Shown: positions 33,106-40,502 of the stretch, piece by piece
How positions within the stretch are numbered: the stretch's first letter is position 1
Layout: every line of letters starts with the position of its first letter
NCBI GenBank assembly: GCA_000745135.1
Contig: JQNH01000001.1
Coordinates: 930,001 to 994,000 of the forward strand
From: Rhizobiales bacterium YIM 77505
GTDB taxonomy: Bacteria; Pseudomonadota; Alphaproteobacteria; Rhizobiales; Beijerinckiaceae
Reading direction: 5' to 3'
Length of the DNA stretch: 64,000 nucleotides
The notes under the pieces: model-generated
What the model saw: only the letters and a program-made list of their open reading frames with translations
Told to the model about the DNA's origin: nothing
Database searches by the model: none
Made by a program: the position numbers and the translations under genes

Positions 33106-33509
33106 TGCCGTCCTCCGCGCAAGGGTGCGAACGTCGCCCATGGGCGTCGCCTGCCCGGGCCGCGCCCGCCGCGGATGCTGGAGATAGCCGACAGGTATTC
33201 GCCTGCCGCCTCGGGATCGAACTCGGACAAGGCATCGAGCACTGCGTCCATCCGCGTCTTCGGCGCGAGCTCCGGCGCGGCCTTGGATGCGATCTGCTCG
33301 GCGACGAGTTCGTCGCGGGCCCAGGACAGGAGAATGGTCCGCTTCTCCTGGTCGGTGAACCAGGGGTGGTGGACGACCTCCTGCGGATCCTGGAAGACAT
33401 TGGCGGGAGCCACAAGCGCCTCGACGAACGAACGTTCGGAGACGCCGGGGCTGTCGATGGCCGCCATGGGCCGAACCTGCGCCGCAGAGTCGGTATGGAT
33501 CCGTTCCAT
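33102..33509 (-). CDS. Conserved hypothetical protein sharing a domain with its downstream neighbour
   Basis: This 135-residue protein has the segment APANVFQDPQEVVHHPWFTDQEKRTILLSWARDELVAEQIA, closely similar to residues of the NDUFS4-like fusion encoded next (VF-x2-P-x-EVV-x2-P-x6-EKR-x2-L-x2-WA-x-D). The pair therefore shares a common helical module of unknown function. A Ser/Ala-rich linker and a basic Gly/Arg tail complete it. The ribosome-binding site GGAG is seven bases upstream of ATG 33509. It ends by ATGA on the next gene. Confidence 0.6.
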   Translation of the reverse strand: MERIHTDSAAQVRPMAAIDSPGVSERSFVEALVAPANVFQDPQEVVHHPWFTDQEKRTILLSWARDELVAEQIASKAAPELAPKTRMDAVLDALSEFDPEAAGEYLSAISSIRGGRGPGRRRPWATFAPLRGGRQ

Positions 33510-33542
33510 CGCCCATCTCCGCTCCTTCCACCGCCGAAGGTG

Positions 33543-33575
33543 CTCCGGGCGGCACGGATCATCGTACCGCCGGAG
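33543..33575 (-). other. Inverted repeat between hsp20 and downstream genes
   Basis: CTCCGG-g-CGG pairs with CCGCCGGAG around a 14-base loop, with one bulge. It lies in the 92-bp gap between the second hsp20 and the next gene on the minus strand. No T run follows, so it may be an RNA processing or stabilising hairpin rather than a full terminator. Confidence 0.35.
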
Positions 33576-33601
33576 TCTTCGTGCCGCTCAGCCCTCGTGC
33601 C

Positions 33602-34102
33602 TCAGGCCTCCTTCCCGTTGATCGGGATGCGCTTGGCCTTTTCCTGCGCCTTCGGGGATCTCGGCAGGGTGACGGTGAGCACGCCGTTCTTGAACGACGC
33701 CTCGGCCCTGTCCTCATCCACCTCGAAGGGCAGAGGAATGACGCGTTCGAAGCGGCCATAGTAGCGCTCGCTGAAGCGGCGCTCCCGGTCCTCGGTCTCG
33801 GCCTTCTTCTCACCGCGGATGGTCAAGACGTCCTGGTCGAGGAGCACCTCGACGTCCTTCTCCTCCATTCCCGGCAGTTCGGCCGTGACCGTCACCTCCT
33901 TGTCGGACGGGACGATCTCGATGCTCGGCCACGTTCCGCGCCCGAACACGCTCGGGGCGCCGAAGCGGCTGAACACGTCATCGAACAGCCGGTTCATCTC
34001 GCGATGAAGGGTCAGGAACGGATCGCCCTCATCGCTGCGGAAGACGCTCGGGACCGAGGATCTGGCGTCCCGGCTCCACGGAATGAGATCTCGAAGTGCC
34101 AT
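33602..34102 (-). CDS. Hsp20/alpha-crystallin family small heat-shock protein
   Basis: This 166-residue class A/C-type small heat-shock protein has an N-terminal segment (MALRDLIPWSRDARSSVPSVF), then DPFLTLHREMNRLFDDVF and the alpha-crystallin domain: PSIEIVPSDKEVTVTAELPGMEEKDVEVLL, LTIRGEKK, RRFSERYYGRFERVIPLP, and FKNGVLTVTLP. The C-terminal tail contains AKRIPING, an I-x-I/V-like anchor. It would hold unfolding proteins under heat stress. GGAGG lies nine bases upstream of the ATG. It follows another hsp20 gene by 91 bp and may be cotranscribed with it. Confidence 0.92.
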   Translation of the reverse strand: MALRDLIPWSRDARSSVPSVFRSDEGDPFLTLHREMNRLFDDVFSRFGAPSVFGRGTWPSIEIVPSDKEVTVTAELPGMEEKDVEVLLDQDVLTIRGEKKAETEDRERRFSERYYGRFERVIPLPFEVDEDRAEASFKNGVLTVTLPRSPKAQEKAKRIPINGKEA

Positions 34103-34148
34103 CGTTCTTCCCTCCTTTCTTTCCCTTGAGTCAGGCGCGCGTTCCTGC

Positions 34149-34171
34149 CCCGCGGGCTCGAGGCCCGCGGG
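34149..34171 (-). other. Very stable hairpin between the two hsp20 genes
   Basis: CCCGCGGGC (34149-34157) and GCCCGCGGG (34163-34171) form a perfect 9-bp stem with a five-base loop. It could be a processing site, an attenuator or a terminator without a T run, setting different levels for the two chaperones. Confidence 0.5.
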
Positions 34172-34193
34172 CCGGACATGCCGTCCGAGCGGG

Positions 34194-34676
34194 TCACGCG
34201 GCCTTGGCCTGCTCGACCTGCTTGGGCTGCCCGATCTGCGCGATCGGCGTCGTGCCCGAGCCGGCGGCGATCTCGATCCTGCGCGGCTTCATCTCTTCGG
34301 GAATTTCCCGCACGAGCTCGATCGTGAGCAGGCCGTTTTCGAGGCTCGCGCCTTTCACGTTCACGTACTCGGCGAGATTGAAGGTGAGCCGGAACGCCCT
34401 GGACGCGATGCCGCGATGCAGGACCTGGACGCCTTCAGGCTCGGGATGTTTGCGGCCCGAGACCACGAGCACGTCCTCCTGCTGGACGAGCTCGATCTCC
34501 TCCGGGGAGAAGCCGGCGACCGCCATCACGATGCGGTACTGGTCCTCGCCCATCTTCTCGATGTTGTAGGGCGGCCAGTTGGTCATCGGCTCGACCCGGG
34601 CGGCTTGATCGAGCATGTCGAACAGCCGGTCGAACCCGACCATGGAGCGATAGAGAGGAGAGAGATCATGCCTCAT
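34194..34676 (-). CDS. Hsp20/alpha-crystallin family small heat-shock protein (IbpA-like), thermometer-controlled
   Basis: The ATG at 34676 (MRHDLSPLYRSMVGFDRLFDMLDQA) gives 160 residues; AGGAGG sits eight bases upstream. SPLYRSMVGFDRLFD and PPYNIEKMGEDQYRIVMAVAGFSPEEIEL, VSGRKH, LHRGIASRAFRLTFNLAEYVNVKGASLENGLLTIELVREIPEEMKPRRIEI are typical of IbpA-type proteins. It would bind aggregates with the second Hsp20 encoded downstream. An RpoH-like promoter and a ROSE-like hairpin that covers the ribosome-binding site lie upstream, so expression is expected to need heat both for transcription and for translation. Confidence 0.93.
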   Translation of the reverse strand: MRHDLSPLYRSMVGFDRLFDMLDQAARVEPMTNWPPYNIEKMGEDQYRIVMAVAGFSPEEIELVQQEDVLVVSGRKHPEPEGVQVLHRGIASRAFRLTFNLAEYVNVKGASLENGLLTIELVREIPEEMKPRRIEIAAGSGTTPIAQIGQPKQVEQAKAA

Positions 34677-34763
34677 AGCCACATCCTCCTTTGAGCAACG
34701 TGGATACGAGGGCGCCGGACACCTCTTGGCGCCCGTCGGGCCAAGCTCAAAGAGCCTTGGCTG
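34677..34763 (-). promoter_or_regulatory. ROSE-type RNA thermometer in the hsp20 leader
   Basis: The predicted leader has three stems on the minus strand. First CCAAG-g-CTC/GAGCTTGG; then GGGCGCC with GGCGCCC; last, at 34703-34679, a hairpin in which UUGCUC faces the Shine-Dalgarno GGAGGAU and CCAC pairs with GUGG. In the last one CUC pairs with GAG, G faces G, U pairs with A and U faces U. This is the hallmark of ROSE elements: UUGCU anti-SD plus a G-G mismatch that melts on heating. Known ROSE elements control hsp20 genes in rhizobia. Confidence 0.78.
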
Positions 34764-34770
34764 TAGAAGG

Positions 34771-34798
34771 ACTTAGGATTCGTCGCGGCGCTTTCAAG
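34771..34798 (-). promoter_or_regulatory. RpoH (sigma-32)-like promoter of the hsp20 cluster
   Basis: Minus strand CTTGAAA (34798-34792), 14 bases and CCTAAGT (34777-34771). The -35 matches the heat-shock consensus exactly and the -10 is partial. The predicted start is near 34764, giving a leader of about 87 bases with the thermometer. Confidence 0.6.
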
Positions 34799-34919
34799 GG
34801 GGGCGCACGGGCTTGAGTGGCCGTGCTCCCTTGCCACGCGAAGGCAGGCTCTCCAAGATGCCGCCGGCAAGCCGCAGCGGGATCCCCCTCGCCACTGCGG
34901 GGAGCCGGGGGAGCGCGGG

Positions 34920-35366
34920 ATGGATGCCTTCTATGTGAAGATCGGCGACCGGGTGACCTTCGCCAAGACCGTCGGCGAGTCCGACGTCTACCTCTTCGCC
35001 GGCATCACGGGAGACTTCGCCGTCAACCACGTCAACGAGCAGTATATGACGCGCTCCCGGTACGGGCGGCGCATCGCCCATGGGGCGCTCCTCGTCGGCT
35101 TCATGTCGACTTGCTCGACGATGATGGTCGAGCGCAGCGGAGGGCTGTCGGGCGAGGAGACGCCGGTGTCGCTCGGCTACGACCGCATCCGCTTCCTGGG
35201 GCCAGTGTTCATCGGCGATACCGTGACACTCACCTACACCATCGCGTCGGTCGATCCGGGAAAGCGTGAGTCGGTTGCCGATATTCAGGTCGTCAACCAG
35301 AGCGGCGAGCTCGTCGCGGTAGCGCAGCACAAGATGCGCTGGGTGAGGAACCGCGCCGAGCCGTGA
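34920..35366 (+). CDS. MaoC-like (R)-specific enoyl-CoA hydratase
   Basis: This 148-residue hot-dog protein has the hydratase 2 motif FAGITGDFAVNHVNEQYM (Asp, Asn and His of the active site), then RIAHGALLVGFMSTCSTMM and DRIRFLGPVFIGDTVTLTY. It would hydrate trans-2-enoyl-CoA to an (R)-3-hydroxyacyl-CoA, which can feed polyhydroxyalkanoate synthesis. It stands divergent from the hsp20 cluster. The ATG is preceded by GGGGGAG. The true substrate is unknown. Confidence 0.85.
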   Translation: MDAFYVKIGDRVTFAKTVGESDVYLFAGITGDFAVNHVNEQYMTRSRYGRRIAHGALLVGFMSTCSTMMVERSGGLSGEETPVSLGYDRIRFLGPVFIGDTVTLTYTIASVDPGKRESVADIQVVNQSGELVAVAQHKMRWVRNRAEP

Positions 35367-36166: not shown

Positions 36167-38692
36167 TCAGCCCACACCGACCGGCACCTGCCAGATCTCC
36201 TCAGCATATTCGCGGATGGTACGGTCGGAGGAGAACCAGCCGACCCTCGCGGTGTTGAGGACGCTCGAGCGCCACCAGGTCCGAGGCTCCTCCCATCGCT
36301 CGTCGACGCGGCGCTGCGCCTCCCAATAGGCATCGAAGTCGGCCGTCACCATGAAGCGGTCGCGGTGGCTCAGTTCGTCGATCAGCGGCCGGAAACGGTC
36401 TGGCTCCTCGGGCGAGAAGAGGCCCGAGCCGATGGCTTCGAGAGCGTCGGCAAGGCGCGGCGAGGAGGCGATGGTGACGGGTGCGTGCGCCCCGCGCCGC
36501 AGGCGCTCCTCCACCTCCTCGGCGCGCAGGCCGAAGATGAAGATGTGATCATCGCCGACCTGCTCGGCGATTTCGATGTTGGCGCCGTCCAGGGTGCCGA
36601 TTGTCAGCGCGCCGTTGAGCGCGAGCTTCATGTTGCCGGTGCCTGAGGCTTCCATGCCGGCGGTCGAGATCTGCTCCGACAGGTCGGCCGCCGGAATGAT
36701 CGCCTCGGCAAGGCTGACATTGTAGTTCGGCAGGAACACGACCTTCAGGCGGTCGCGGATCTCGGAATCGTTGTTGACGACGCGCGCCACGTCGTTGGCC
36801 AGCTTGATGATGAGCTTCGCCTGTCGGTAGCTCGCGGCCGCCTTGCCGGCGAAGATCTTGACGCGCGGCGTCCAGTCAAGATCGGGATCGGCCTTCATCG
36901 CCCGGTACAGCGCCACGGTCTCCAGGATGTTGAGGAGCTGCCGCTTGTACTCGTGGATCCGCTTGATGTGGACGTCGAACAGCGCGGAAGGGTCGATGCT
37001 GACCTCGACGCGCTCGGCGACGAGCCGAGCGAGTGCCGTCTTGTTCGCCTGGCGTTGCTTCGCGAACTCCTCCTGGAATGCGGGATCGGACGCGAACCGT
37101 TCGAGCTGGCGCAGCGCCTCAGGGTCGTCGAGCATGCCCTCGCCGAGGGTGTCGATCAGAAGTCGGGTGAGCGTCGGGTTCGCCTGGTGCAGCCAACGGC
37201 GGAAGGTGATGCCGTTCGTCTTGTTGACGATCTTCTCGGGGTAGAGGGCGTGTAGGTCCCGGAACACGGTTTGGCGCATGAGGTCCGTGTGCAGGGCGGA
37301 AACGCCGTTCACGCGCCGCGCGCCGAGGAAGGCAAGATGCCCCATGCGGACCCGTCGGCCCTGCGTCTCGTCGATGAGCGAGATGGCCGCGATGGTGCGC
37401 TCATCGAGCGGTCCCGTCCGCTCTGAAAGCGCTTCGAGGTGGAGCCAGTTGATCAGGTAGATGATCTGCATGTGGCGCGGCAGCAGCCGCTCCATCATCG
37501 CCACCGGCCAGGTCTCGAGAGCCTCCGGCAGCAAGGTATGATTGGTGTAGTTGAGCGTGTTGGTGGTGATCGACCACGCCTCGTCCCAGCCAAGGCCGTG
37601 CTCGTCGACCAGGAGCCGCATGAGCTCGGCGACGGCGATGGCCGGGTGCGTGTCGTTGAGCTGGATCGAGGCATGCTCGGCGAGCGTGCGCAGGTTCCCG
37701 TGCTGCCTGAGATGCCGGCGCACCAGGTCCTGGAGCGATGCGGAGGTGAAGAAGTATTCCTGCCGCAGGCGCAGCTCCTGGCCGGCCGGGGTCGCGTCGC
37801 TCGGGTAGAGGATGCGCGAGATCGCCTCCGCCCGGGCTCGGTGGGCGAGGGCGCCCACATAATCGCCCTGGTTGAAGGCATCGAGGTGGAGCGGGTCCGC
37901 GGCTCGCGCCGCCCACAGGCGCAGCGTGTTCACATGGCGGCCGCGCCAGCCCACGATCGGCGTGTCATAGGCCAGCGCCAGAACCGTCTCGCCCGGGTGC
38001 CACATATGGCGGATCAGACCGCCTTCTCCGGGGGCGAGCTCGACCGAACCGCCGAAATGGATGGGATAGACGATTTCCGGGCGCTCGAACTCCCACGGGT
38101 TGCCGGAAGCGAGCCAGTCTTCGGGCAACTCGTTCTGCCAGCCCTCGGTGATGACCTGCCGGAAAAGCCCGTAATCGTAGCGGATCCCGTAGCCGAAGGC
38201 AGGGATGCCGAGACTGGCGAGGCTCTCCATGAAGCAGGCGGCAAGGCGCCCAAGACCGCCATTGCCGAGCGCCGCATCGGGTTCCGTGCAGCGAAGCTCG
38301 TCCAGGTCTAGCCCCAGGTCCTTCAGAGCTTGCCGCGCCTCCTCGATCAGTCCCAGATTGCCGAGCGCCTCAAAAAGCAGCCGCCCGACGAGGAACTCCA
38401 GCGAGAGATAATAGACCTGCTTGCGGCCAAGCTCCTGCGTGGCACGGCTCGACTCCATCCAGCGGTCGATGATTCGGTCGCGCACGGCGAGCACCGTTGC
38501 CGCGAGCCAATCGTGGCCGCGGGCGGTGGTCGTGTCCCGCCCCACCGTGTAGGTCAGCTTGGCAAGGATCGCTTGCCGCAGCTCTTCTCCTGCTGGCAGG
38601 GCCGCGTCCGTAGGCTCGTGCCTCGAGGAGCCCCGCTGAGCAGGGGGGCGGAGGGAACGACGGCGTGGCTCAAGCACGTTGCGCTCCTGCAC
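36167..38692 (-). CDS. glgP: Glycogen/alpha-glucan phosphorylase
   Basis: GlgP releases glucose-1-phosphate from the non-reducing ends of glycogen. The 841-residue protein is full length. Family marks are RKQVYYLSLEFLVGRLL, DAALGNGGLGRLAACFMESLA, GYGIRYDYGLFRQ, TNGITFRRWL and the PLP site MEASGTGNMKLALNGALTIGTLDGANIEI (Lys about 687). The likely start is GTG 38692, with GAGAG nine bases upstream. It is divergent from glgA. The spacing of 271 bp leaves room for separate promoters; only the glgA side shows a clear motif. Confidence 0.95.
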   Translation of the reverse strand: MQERNVLEPRRRSLRPPAQRGSSRHEPTDAALPAGEELRQAILAKLTYTVGRDTTTARGHDWLAATVLAVRDRIIDRWMESSRATQELGRKQVYYLSLEFLVGRLLFEALGNLGLIEEARQALKDLGLDLDELRCTEPDAALGNGGLGRLAACFMESLASLGIPAFGYGIRYDYGLFRQVITEGWQNELPEDWLASGNPWEFERPEIVYPIHFGGSVELAPGEGGLIRHMWHPGETVLALAYDTPIVGWRGRHVNTLRLWAARAADPLHLDAFNQGDYVGALAHRARAEAISRILYPSDATPAGQELRLRQEYFFTSASLQDLVRRHLRQHGNLRTLAEHASIQLNDTHPAIAVAELMRLLVDEHGLGWDEAWSITTNTLNYTNHTLLPEALETWPVAMMERLLPRHMQIIYLINWLHLEALSERTGPLDERTIAAISLIDETQGRRVRMGHLAFLGARRVNGVSALHTDLMRQTVFRDLHALYPEKIVNKTNGITFRRWLHQANPTLTRLLIDTLGEGMLDDPEALRQLERFASDPAFQEEFAKQRQANKTALARLVAERVEVSIDPSALFDVHIKRIHEYKRQLLNILETVALYRAMKADPDLDWTPRVKIFAGKAAASYRQAKLIIKLANDVARVVNNDSEIRDRLKVVFLPNYNVSLAEAIIPAADLSEQISTAGMEASGTGNMKLALNGALTIGTLDGANIEIAEQVGDDHIFIFGLRAEEVEERLRRGAHAPVTIASSPRLADALEAIGSGLFSPEEPDRFRPLIDELSHRDRFMVTADFDAYWEAQRRVDERWEEPRTWWRSSVLNTARVGWFSSDRTIREYAEEIWQVPVGVG

Positions 38693-38875
38693 GGCTCAAT
38701 GCTCTCTTTGGACGCAAATAGGGCCCGCGCTATGGCCCCCCGCAGCTTGCGGCGCAAGGTTGACCTTGCCGCAGGGCGTGGGCAAGTCGCCGCGGCGGCG
38801 ATGCGGCTTGCTTATCCACCACCGTAGAACGCGAAGCCTGGCACGTTTTGAGTCTAGCCGCAGGTCTCCTCGTTT

Positions 38876-38900
38876 GGAACTTTGCCGCCGCAAGGACGTT
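38876..38900 (+). promoter_or_regulatory. Candidate EcfG (general stress) promoter of glgA
   Basis: GGAAC (38876-38880), 16 bases, CGTT (38897-38900), an exact EcfG consensus in the glgA direction. The predicted start near 38908 leaves a leader of about 56 bases, which holds a short hairpin (38927-38942). Confidence 0.7.
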
Positions 38901-38926
38901 CTGCGCCAGACCTTCTTCATACCACG

Positions 38927-38942
38927 GCGAAGCTTGCTTCGC
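38927..38942 (+). other. Hairpin in the glgA leader
   Basis: GCGAAG, loop CTTG, CTTCGC. It lies between the predicted EcfG start and the ribosome-binding region of glgA, and may stabilise or control the message. Confidence 0.35.
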
Positions 38943-38963
38943 GGCGGGGGCCTAGCGCGGGGC

Positions 38964-40502
38964 ATGCACCAGTCGGCTGAACTCGAAATGCGTCGGGGTG
39001 GGGGCCTTCGGCGAATTCCCTTGCGGCCGCGGGGGACTGCCTCGCCGTCTCGTCTCGATACCGAAGCCGCCCCGGAGCGCATCCTCTACGTCACGCCGGA
39101 GATCGCGGATTATGTGAAGGCCGGCGGGCTCGGCGAGGTCTCGGCGGCGCTGCCCCGGACGCTCCGTCAGCAATACGATGTGCGAATCCTCATTCCCGGC
39201 TATCCCGCGGTGCTGCGGGCGCATCGCTCGATCCCGGTGGTGGGACGGCTGAAGCCCGCCTTTGGGCTTCCGGGGGCCGAGCTCGGCAGGATCGACGCGC
39301 CGGACGGTCTCATCTTCTACGTGCTTCTCTGCCCCGACCTTTACGAGCGGGAGGGCAGCCCTTACGGGGGCCCGGACGGGATCGATTGGCCGGACAACGA
39401 CATCCGCTTCGCGCGTCTCGCGCTGGCGGCAGCCGACATCGCCGCCGGTGCCGGTGAGATCGGCTGGCGCCCTCATCTGCTCCATCTCAACGATTGGCCC
39501 TCGGCCCTGGCTCCAGCTTATCTCGCCTGGCGCGGCGCGCCTGTGCCGAGCGTACTCACCATCCATAATCTTGCCTATCAGGGCCTGTTCGGGCGCGAGC
39601 GCCTGCCCCGGCTCGGCATTCCTGAGAGCGCCTTTCACATCGACGGCGTGGAGTTCTACGGCAAGCTGTCCTTCCTCAAGGCCGGGATCGTCTATGCCTC
39701 CCACGTGACGACGGTGAGCGCCACCTACGCCAAGGAGATCACCACTCCCGAGCACGGATGCGGCCTCGACGGCCTTCTGCGCCTCAAGGCAGAGGCAGGT
39801 CGACTCACCGGGATCGTCAACGGGATCGATGAGAGCTGGGATCCGCGCATCGACCCGCATCTGGCAAGTCCCTTCGAGGCGCGCAATCTCAAGGGCAAGG
39901 CTGTCAATGCCGAGCAGGTGCGGCGGGAGTTCGGGCTCGCGGTGTCCCGCGGCCCGCTCTTCGCCGTGGTGTCCCGCCTCGTGCATCAAAAAGGGGTCGA
40001 CCTCGCCATCGAGGCGGCCCAGACCATCGTGCGCGAAGGCGGACAGATCGTCGTCACCGGGCGCGGCGAGGAGCGCTTCGAGAGCGAGCTTGAACGCTTA
40101 TCAGCGCGCTATCCCGGTGCCGTAGGCGTCAAGATCGGCTTCGAAGAAGGGGTCGCTCGGCGCATGTTCGCCGGCAGCGATTTCCTGCTCATGCCCTCGC
40201 GCTTCGAGCCCTGCGGTTTGAGCCAGATGTACGCGCAGCGCTTCGGCTCCTTGCCGATCGCCCATTGCACCGGCGGCCTCGCTGACACCATTCAGGACGG
40301 GGTGACGGGCTTTCTCTTCCGCGAGCATTCCTTGAGCGGCCTGCTCGAGGCTGTCTATCGGGCCGTCGACACCTTCCGTTCCCGGCGCACGCTCAACGCC
40401 ATGCGGCGGGCCGCGATGGCGCGGGGCTTCGGCTGGCAGCGGGCCGCGCTCGGCTACAAGGCCGTCTATGGGCGCGCGCTCGCCGCGTTTCCGCGCGGCT
40501 GA
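38964..40502 (+). CDS. glgA: Glycogen synthase (ADP-glucose type) GlgA
   Basis: GlgA (GT5) extends alpha-1,4-glucan from ADP-glucose. The ATG at 38964 (MHQSAELEMRRGGGLRRIPLRPRG) gives 512 residues; the frame is open further upstream, but it would pass through the EcfG promoter. Conserved: ILYVTPEIADYVKAGGLGEVSAALP (ADP-glucose binding, KAGGLG about 53), LHLNDWPSALAPAYL, TIHNLAYQGLF, VSATYAKEITTPEHG, NGIDESWDP, SRLVHQKGVD, and MPSRFEPCGLSQMYAQRFGSLPIAHCTGGLADTI. The first 35 residues are a basic extension. glgC is not in the window, so ADP-glucose must come from elsewhere. Confidence 0.93.
   Translation: MHQSAELEMRRGGGLRRIPLRPRGTASPSRLDTEAAPERILYVTPEIADYVKAGGLGEVSAALPRTLRQQYDVRILIPGYPAVLRAHRSIPVVGRLKPAFGLPGAELGRIDAPDGLIFYVLLCPDLYEREGSPYGGPDGIDWPDNDIRFARLALAAADIAAGAGEIGWRPHLLHLNDWPSALAPAYLAWRGAPVPSVLTIHNLAYQGLFGRERLPRLGIPESAFHIDGVEFYGKLSFLKAGIVYASHVTTVSATYAKEITTPEHGCGLDGLLRLKAEAGRLTGIVNGIDESWDPRIDPHLASPFEARNLKGKAVNAEQVRREFGLAVSRGPLFAVVSRLVHQKGVDLAIEAAQTIVREGGQIVVTGRGEERFESELERLSARYPGAVGVKIGFEEGVARRMFAGSDFLLMPSRFEPCGLSQMYAQRFGSLPIAHCTGGLADTIQDGVTGFLFREHSLSGLLEAVYRAVDTFRSRRTLNAMRRAAMARGFGWQRAALGYKAVYGRALAAFPRG

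What the first reader, a model, noticed from the sequence alone, without database searches (positions are those of the whole stretch)
34677..34798. RpoH-like promoter plus ROSE RNA thermometer before hsp20
The leader ends in a hairpin where UUGCUC opposes GGAGGAU with a G-G and a U-U mismatch, exactly the signature of ROSE. Two further stems precede it, and CTTGAAA with a partial -10 lies about 90 bases upstream of the start codon. Two layers of heat control are predicted.
Basis: partly seen in the sequence, partly recalled or inferred. Interest (0 to 1): 0.62.

Follow-up and report, generated by a model that had tools for sequence, protein, structure and literature searches.

The report
Known heat-sensing RNA switch before hsp20

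Summary
Confirmed, and ordinary. On the minus strand, window 34761-34670 matches the Rfam ROSE family (RF00435) over its full length at 65.1 bits (gathering score 45). It precedes an IbpA-type Hsp20 gene (34676-34194). The last hairpin carries the invariant UUGCUC/GGAGGAU core with the single bulged G. Forty-nine distinct leaders keep this core unchanged, while other stem positions show compensating changes. Immediately upstream is CTTGAA-N15-CCTAAGT (34798-34771). A loosened Sinorhizobium RpoH1 consensus has only three matches in the 4.19-Mb genome: this site, the same place upstream of a second ROSE-hsp20 copy, and upstream of groES. The spacing from promoter to hairpin is conserved in relatives. 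Two layers of heat control (RpoH transcription plus thermometer translation) are therefore the best reading, and are already reported for rhizobial small heat-shock genes (PMC3989490) and Pseudomonas ibpA (PMC3669281). Corrections: the strand is minus; CTTGAAA starts 122 nt (the -10 element 94-95 nt) upstream of the ATG; the G-G and U-U pairs are inferred from the solved ROSE structure, since folding software shows a bulged G. Temperature response was not measured. New member of a known kind, low interest.

The parts
34792..34798 (-). -35 element CTTGAAA of RpoH-like promoter
   Evidence: pattern found at only 3 places in the genome, all before heat-shock genes; position conserved in relatives
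34771..34777 (-). -10 element CCTAAGT (S. meliloti RpoH1 consensus CCTATAT; 5 of 7 match), 15-nt spacer after CTTGAA
   Evidence: consensus in PMC4843759
34759..34766 (-). expected transcription start region (5-12 nt after the -10), giving a leader of about 83-90 nt that begins at stem I
   Evidence: inference; 5-12 nt rule from PMC3616915
34740..34761 (-). ROSE stem I (GCCAAG...CUUGGC)
   Evidence: 5 of 6 pairs with changes on both sides across relatives, 98% paired
34713..34738 (-). ROSE stem II; alternative 7-bp pairing GGGCGCC/GGCGCCC (34734-34728 with 34716-34710) possible
34671..34711 (-). ROSE thermosensing hairpin (stem III) holding anti-SD, SD and start codon
34693..34698 (-). anti-SD UUGCUC with the conserved unpaired G at 34696
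   Evidence: invariant in 49 distinct leaders
34685..34689 (-). Shine-Dalgarno sequence GGAGG
   Evidence: sequence; invariant
34194..34676 (-). hsp20, IbpA-type (class A) small heat-shock protein, 160 aa, ATG at 34676 (in-frame GTG at 34682 possible)
   Evidence: PF00011 61 bits; NCBIfam IbpA model 144 bits, below its cut-off of 212
33602..34102 (-). second hsp20 in the likely operon, 34% identical to the first, 91 nt downstream
   Evidence: PF00011 81 bits

Best explanation
This is a genuine ROSE RNA thermometer in the leader of an IbpA-type hsp20 (probably with a second hsp20 in the same transcript), transcribed from an RpoH (sigma-32-type) promoter. Inferred mechanism: after a temperature rise RpoH-containing polymerase makes more of the mRNA. 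At normal temperature the last hairpin hides the Shine-Dalgarno sequence and the AUG; at heat-shock temperature the imperfect UUGCUC/GGAGGAU helix loosens around the conserved G and lets the ribosome bind. Shown here: sequence, family match, conservation, covariation, promoter consensus and its genome-wide specificity, gene context. Inferred: that the promoter is used, that the hairpin opens with heat, and the G-G and U-U contacts.
For: RF00435 full-length match 65.1 bits over a gathering score of 45; none of the 14 control genomes matches in the same search. Stable three-hairpin fold, z -4.45. Second copy in the same genome (C1:716345-716437, 58.2 bits) with the same promoter, before an Hsp20 77% identical. 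In 49 distinct leaders UUGCUC, GGAGGAU and the ATG are invariant, 94.6% of 1029 cells pair, 9 pairs change on both sides, 0 of 500 shuffles reach the covariation score, and slid controls pair at 38-51%. Promoter score of 8-9 out of 9 in 63 of 81 motif-bearing leaders against 4.3% in Markov sequences, most starting 95-110 nt before the anti-SD. Genome-wide consensus hits are 3, at two ROSE-hsp20 leaders and groES. RpoH gene present, 377.5 bits over a cut-off of 323.1.
Against: No expression or probing data. The nearest-neighbour model gives only gradual weakening: cost to free the SD 7.2 kcal/mol at 25 C and 5.5 at 42 C, so temperature switching is not demonstrated by calculation; that model has no good terms for non-canonical pairs. 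Most pairs beside the SD never vary, so they add no covariation support. The -10 differs from the S. meliloti consensus at two positions. Many sequences in the comparison are closely related.
Confidence: 0.95

Rival explanations
1. The thermometer is real but transcription comes mainly from a housekeeping promoter, so heat control is translational only.
For: Promoter use was not measured; the -10 CCTAAGT is imperfect (against the consensus).
Against: No sigma-70-type consensus site in 33400-35000; CTTGAA/-10 element conserved at near-fixed spacing in relatives; the only other genome match lies before groES.
Confidence: 0.06
2. The leader hairpins are only a stable 5' structure (mRNA protection or processing) and do not sense temperature.
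For: The whole leader is very GC-rich and stable (-48 kcal/mol); computed SD opening remains small at 42 C.
Against: Exact invariance of the ROSE core and covariation in the stems; tested members with this core respond to heat (PMC3669281; PMC9450479).
Confidence: 0.03
3. Chance: a GC-rich palindromic leader that happens to resemble ROSE.
For: GC-rich genomes form many hairpins.
Against: E 1.7e-7 across 64 kb for all 4227 families; second genomic copy and dozens of orthologous leaders.
Confidence: 0.005

Closest known systems
ROSE element, Rfam RF00435 (founding member: Bradyrhizobium japonicum hspA ROSE1)
   Same: Full-length model match, UUGCUC anti-SD, bulged conserved G, SD and AUG in the 3' hairpin, upstream stems, small heat-shock gene downstream
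   Different: Three hairpins here, where four are described for ROSE1 (PMC9450479, PMC3669281); stem II is less regular than in relatives
Mesorhizobium loti mll2387-mll2386 (ROSE plus heat promoter before a two-sHSP operon, PMC3989490)
   Same: Class A sHSP with ROSE followed by a second sHSP; promoter directly upstream; homologous S. meliloti genes reported RpoH-dependent
   Different: Different organism; the second sHSP here resembles other Hsp20 models more than IbpA
Short ROSE-like thermometers of Pseudomonas ibpA (PMC3669281)
   Same: Sigma-32 transcription plus thermometer control of an IbpA-type sHSP; U(U/C)GCU core
   Different: Two hairpins and about 61-62 nt; here three hairpins and about 83-90 nt
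S. meliloti RpoH1 promoters (CTTGAA-N15-16-CCTATAT, quoted in PMC4843759)
   Same: Exact CTTGAA, 15-nt spacer, CCTA and final T
   Different: AG instead of TA at -10 positions 5-6

Membership tests
ROSE (RF00435) | Scores above Rfam's gathering threshold over the full model | tested here: met
   65.1 bits against 45, positions 1-94
ROSE (RF00435) | U(U/C)GCU motif imperfectly paired with the SD in the 3' proximal hairpin | tested here: met
   UUGCUC 34698-34693 against GGAGG 34689-34685
ROSE (RF00435) | Strictly conserved unpaired or non-canonical G opposite the SD | tested here: met
   G34696, invariant in 49 leaders; its G-G geometry was not tested
ROSE (RF00435) | One or more upstream hairpins in the leader | tested here: met
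   two stems; stem I supported by covariation
ROSE (RF00435) | Located in the 5' leader of a small heat-shock gene | tested here: met
   PF00011, ATG 34676 inside the hairpin
ROSE (RF00435) | Temperature-dependent opening and translation | not testable with these tools
   computed weakening is gradual only
RpoH (sigma-32) promoter of alphaproteobacteria | CTTGAA-N15-16-CCTATAT-like sequence at the right spacing | tested here: met
   CTTGAA-N15-CCTAAGT; 3 genome matches, all before heat-shock genes
RpoH (sigma-32) promoter of alphaproteobacteria | RpoH present in the genome | tested here: met
   377.5 bits over a cut-off of 323.1
RpoH (sigma-32) promoter of alphaproteobacteria | RpoH-dependent transcription start | not testable with these tools
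   no RNA data

The most novel reading that the evidence does not exclude
Stem II can pair in two ways, one of which takes bases (CC, 34711-34710) from the foot of the thermosensing hairpin, so in this copy stem II might act as a competing partner that tunes the melting point, as a mild switch rather than a plain zipper.
Probability: 0.08. Interest if true: 0.35.

Novelty: new member of a known kind. Interest (0 to 1): 0.12.

Why it matters
It adds one well-supported example, with a second copy in the same genome, of RpoH plus ROSE double heat control. It would help annotate the heat-shock regulon of this bacterium. It changes no understanding of the class.

Tried and rejected
A housekeeping promoter: no sigma-70-type site in 33400-35000. 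A second thermometer before the downstream hsp20: the 91-nt gap has a GC hairpin but no more structure than shuffles (z -0.08) and no Rfam match. Computed melting as proof of thermosensing: only gradual weakening, not decisive. The primary B. japonicum papers (Nocker 2001; Chowdhury 2006) and Barnett 2012 are not held; their results are cited through later open papers. Stem II was not included in the pair count because its columns align poorly.

Full report
Observation. The feature lies on the minus strand. Reading down from 34798: CTTGAAAGCGCCGCGACGAATCCTAAGT (34798-34771), then a leader of about 83-90 nt, then ATG at 34676. A search of the whole window with all 4227 Rfam families gives one match above threshold: ROSE, RF00435, 34761-34670(-), full length, 65.1 bits, gathering score 45; the same match appears in a permissive local search. 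The leader folds into three hairpins at -48 kcal/mol, z -4.45 against dinucleotide shuffles.

Anatomy. Stem I 34761-34740; stem II 34738-34713; thermosensing hairpin 34711-34671. In the last one UUGCUC (34698-34693) faces GGAGGAU, with G34696 unpaired in the computed fold, and the AUG pairs in the lower stem. The gene is a 160-aa Hsp20 (PF00011), closest to IbpA models though under their cut-off. A second hsp20, 34% identical, starts 91 nt downstream and is probably co-transcribed (inference: no terminator-like or sigma-70-like site between them).

Comparative evidence. Eighty loci encoding relatives were fetched; 49 have the motif directly before the gene. The genome holds a second ROSE before an Hsp20 77% identical. 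In the sampled family, 35 of 199 genomes and 17 of 43 genera have a match at E 0.001 or better under strict filters, so the element is patchy; these counts are lower bounds. In a separate set of 49 distinct leaders, the window's included (sequence alignment, not fitted to structure), the anti-SD, SD and ATG are invariant. Stem I pairs in 98% of cells with 5 of 6 pairs changing on both sides. The thermosensing stem pairs in 93.7%, for example a C-G to U-A exchange in 10 sequences at columns 106/130. Slid controls pair at 38-51%. The six pairs in and next to the SD helix that never vary give no covariation evidence; their invariance is explained by the SD and the conserved ROSE motif.

Promoter. 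The consensus published for S. meliloti RpoH1 is CTTGAA-N15-16-CCTATAT (quoted in PMC4843759). The window has CTTGAA-N15-CCTAAGT. Loosening the -10 to CYTANNT gives three matches in 4.19 Mb (two for the reversed control pattern, so the count alone is not above chance; it is the location of the hits that matters): this site, the second ROSE leader, and a site about 90 nt upstream of the ATG of a GroES-like open reading frame (GroES identified by reading the translation [28 protein letters not shown]..., not by a model search). The pattern was loosened after the window site was known, but the groES hit is independent of it. Across 81 motif-bearing leaders, 63 have a site matching 8 or 9 of 9 positions against 4.3% of Markov sequences, most starting 95-110 nt upstream of the anti-SD; relatedness among these leaders inflates the count. 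The genome has an RpoH-family sigma factor over its curated cut-off. The expected start, 5-12 nt after the -10 (PMC3616915), falls at 34766-34759, right at the foot of stem I, so the transcript would hold essentially the entire element.

Mechanism. RpoH raises transcription on heat shock; the ROSE hairpin blocks the SD and AUG when cool and opens when hot. The second step rests on experiments with other members (PMC3669281; PMC9450479). The G-G contact comes from the NMR structure of the B. japonicum element (as cited in PMC9450479). The computed cost of freeing the SD falls from 7.2 kcal/mol at 25 C to 5.5 at 42 C, in the right direction but not decisive.

Comparison with known systems. M. 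loti has ROSE plus a promoter before a two-sHSP operon, and the S. meliloti homologues are RpoH-dependent (PMC3989490). Pseudomonas ibpA combines sigma-32 and a short ROSE (PMC3669281). The present case is a further member, not a new kind.

Verdict. The finding is correct in substance, with small corrections to strand and distance and a caution on the non-canonical pairs. Interest is low because the arrangement is already well described.

Noticed in passing
L124 (genome C1:1229291-1229319, minus): The only other genome-wide match to the RpoH-type consensus lies about 90 nt before a GroES-like gene.
   Followed up: partly
genome C1:716345-716474 (L002, L098): A second complete RpoH-promoter plus ROSE plus IbpA-type hsp20 unit, with a more regular stem II.
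   Followed up: yes
34684-34673 (-): GGAGGAUGUGGCUAUGAGG contains an AUG directly abutting the SD that opens a three-codon frame (AUG UGG CUA UGA) whose stop overlaps the hsp20 AUG; an in-frame GTG lies 6 nt upstream of the ATG. Several relatives instead have an in-frame upstream ATG (GGAUAUGGCUAUG).
   Followed up: no
34174-34145 (-): Strong GC hairpin (CCCGCGGGC/GCCCGCGGG) between the two hsp20 genes, without a T run; as a region no more structured than shuffles.
   Followed up: partly
family of the window genome: ROSE is patchy: found in 35 of 199 genomes, with up to four copies in one genome.
   Followed up: no
36167-40502: Glycogen phosphorylase and starch/glycogen synthase genes, divergently oriented, close to the heat-shock genes.
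   Followed up: no
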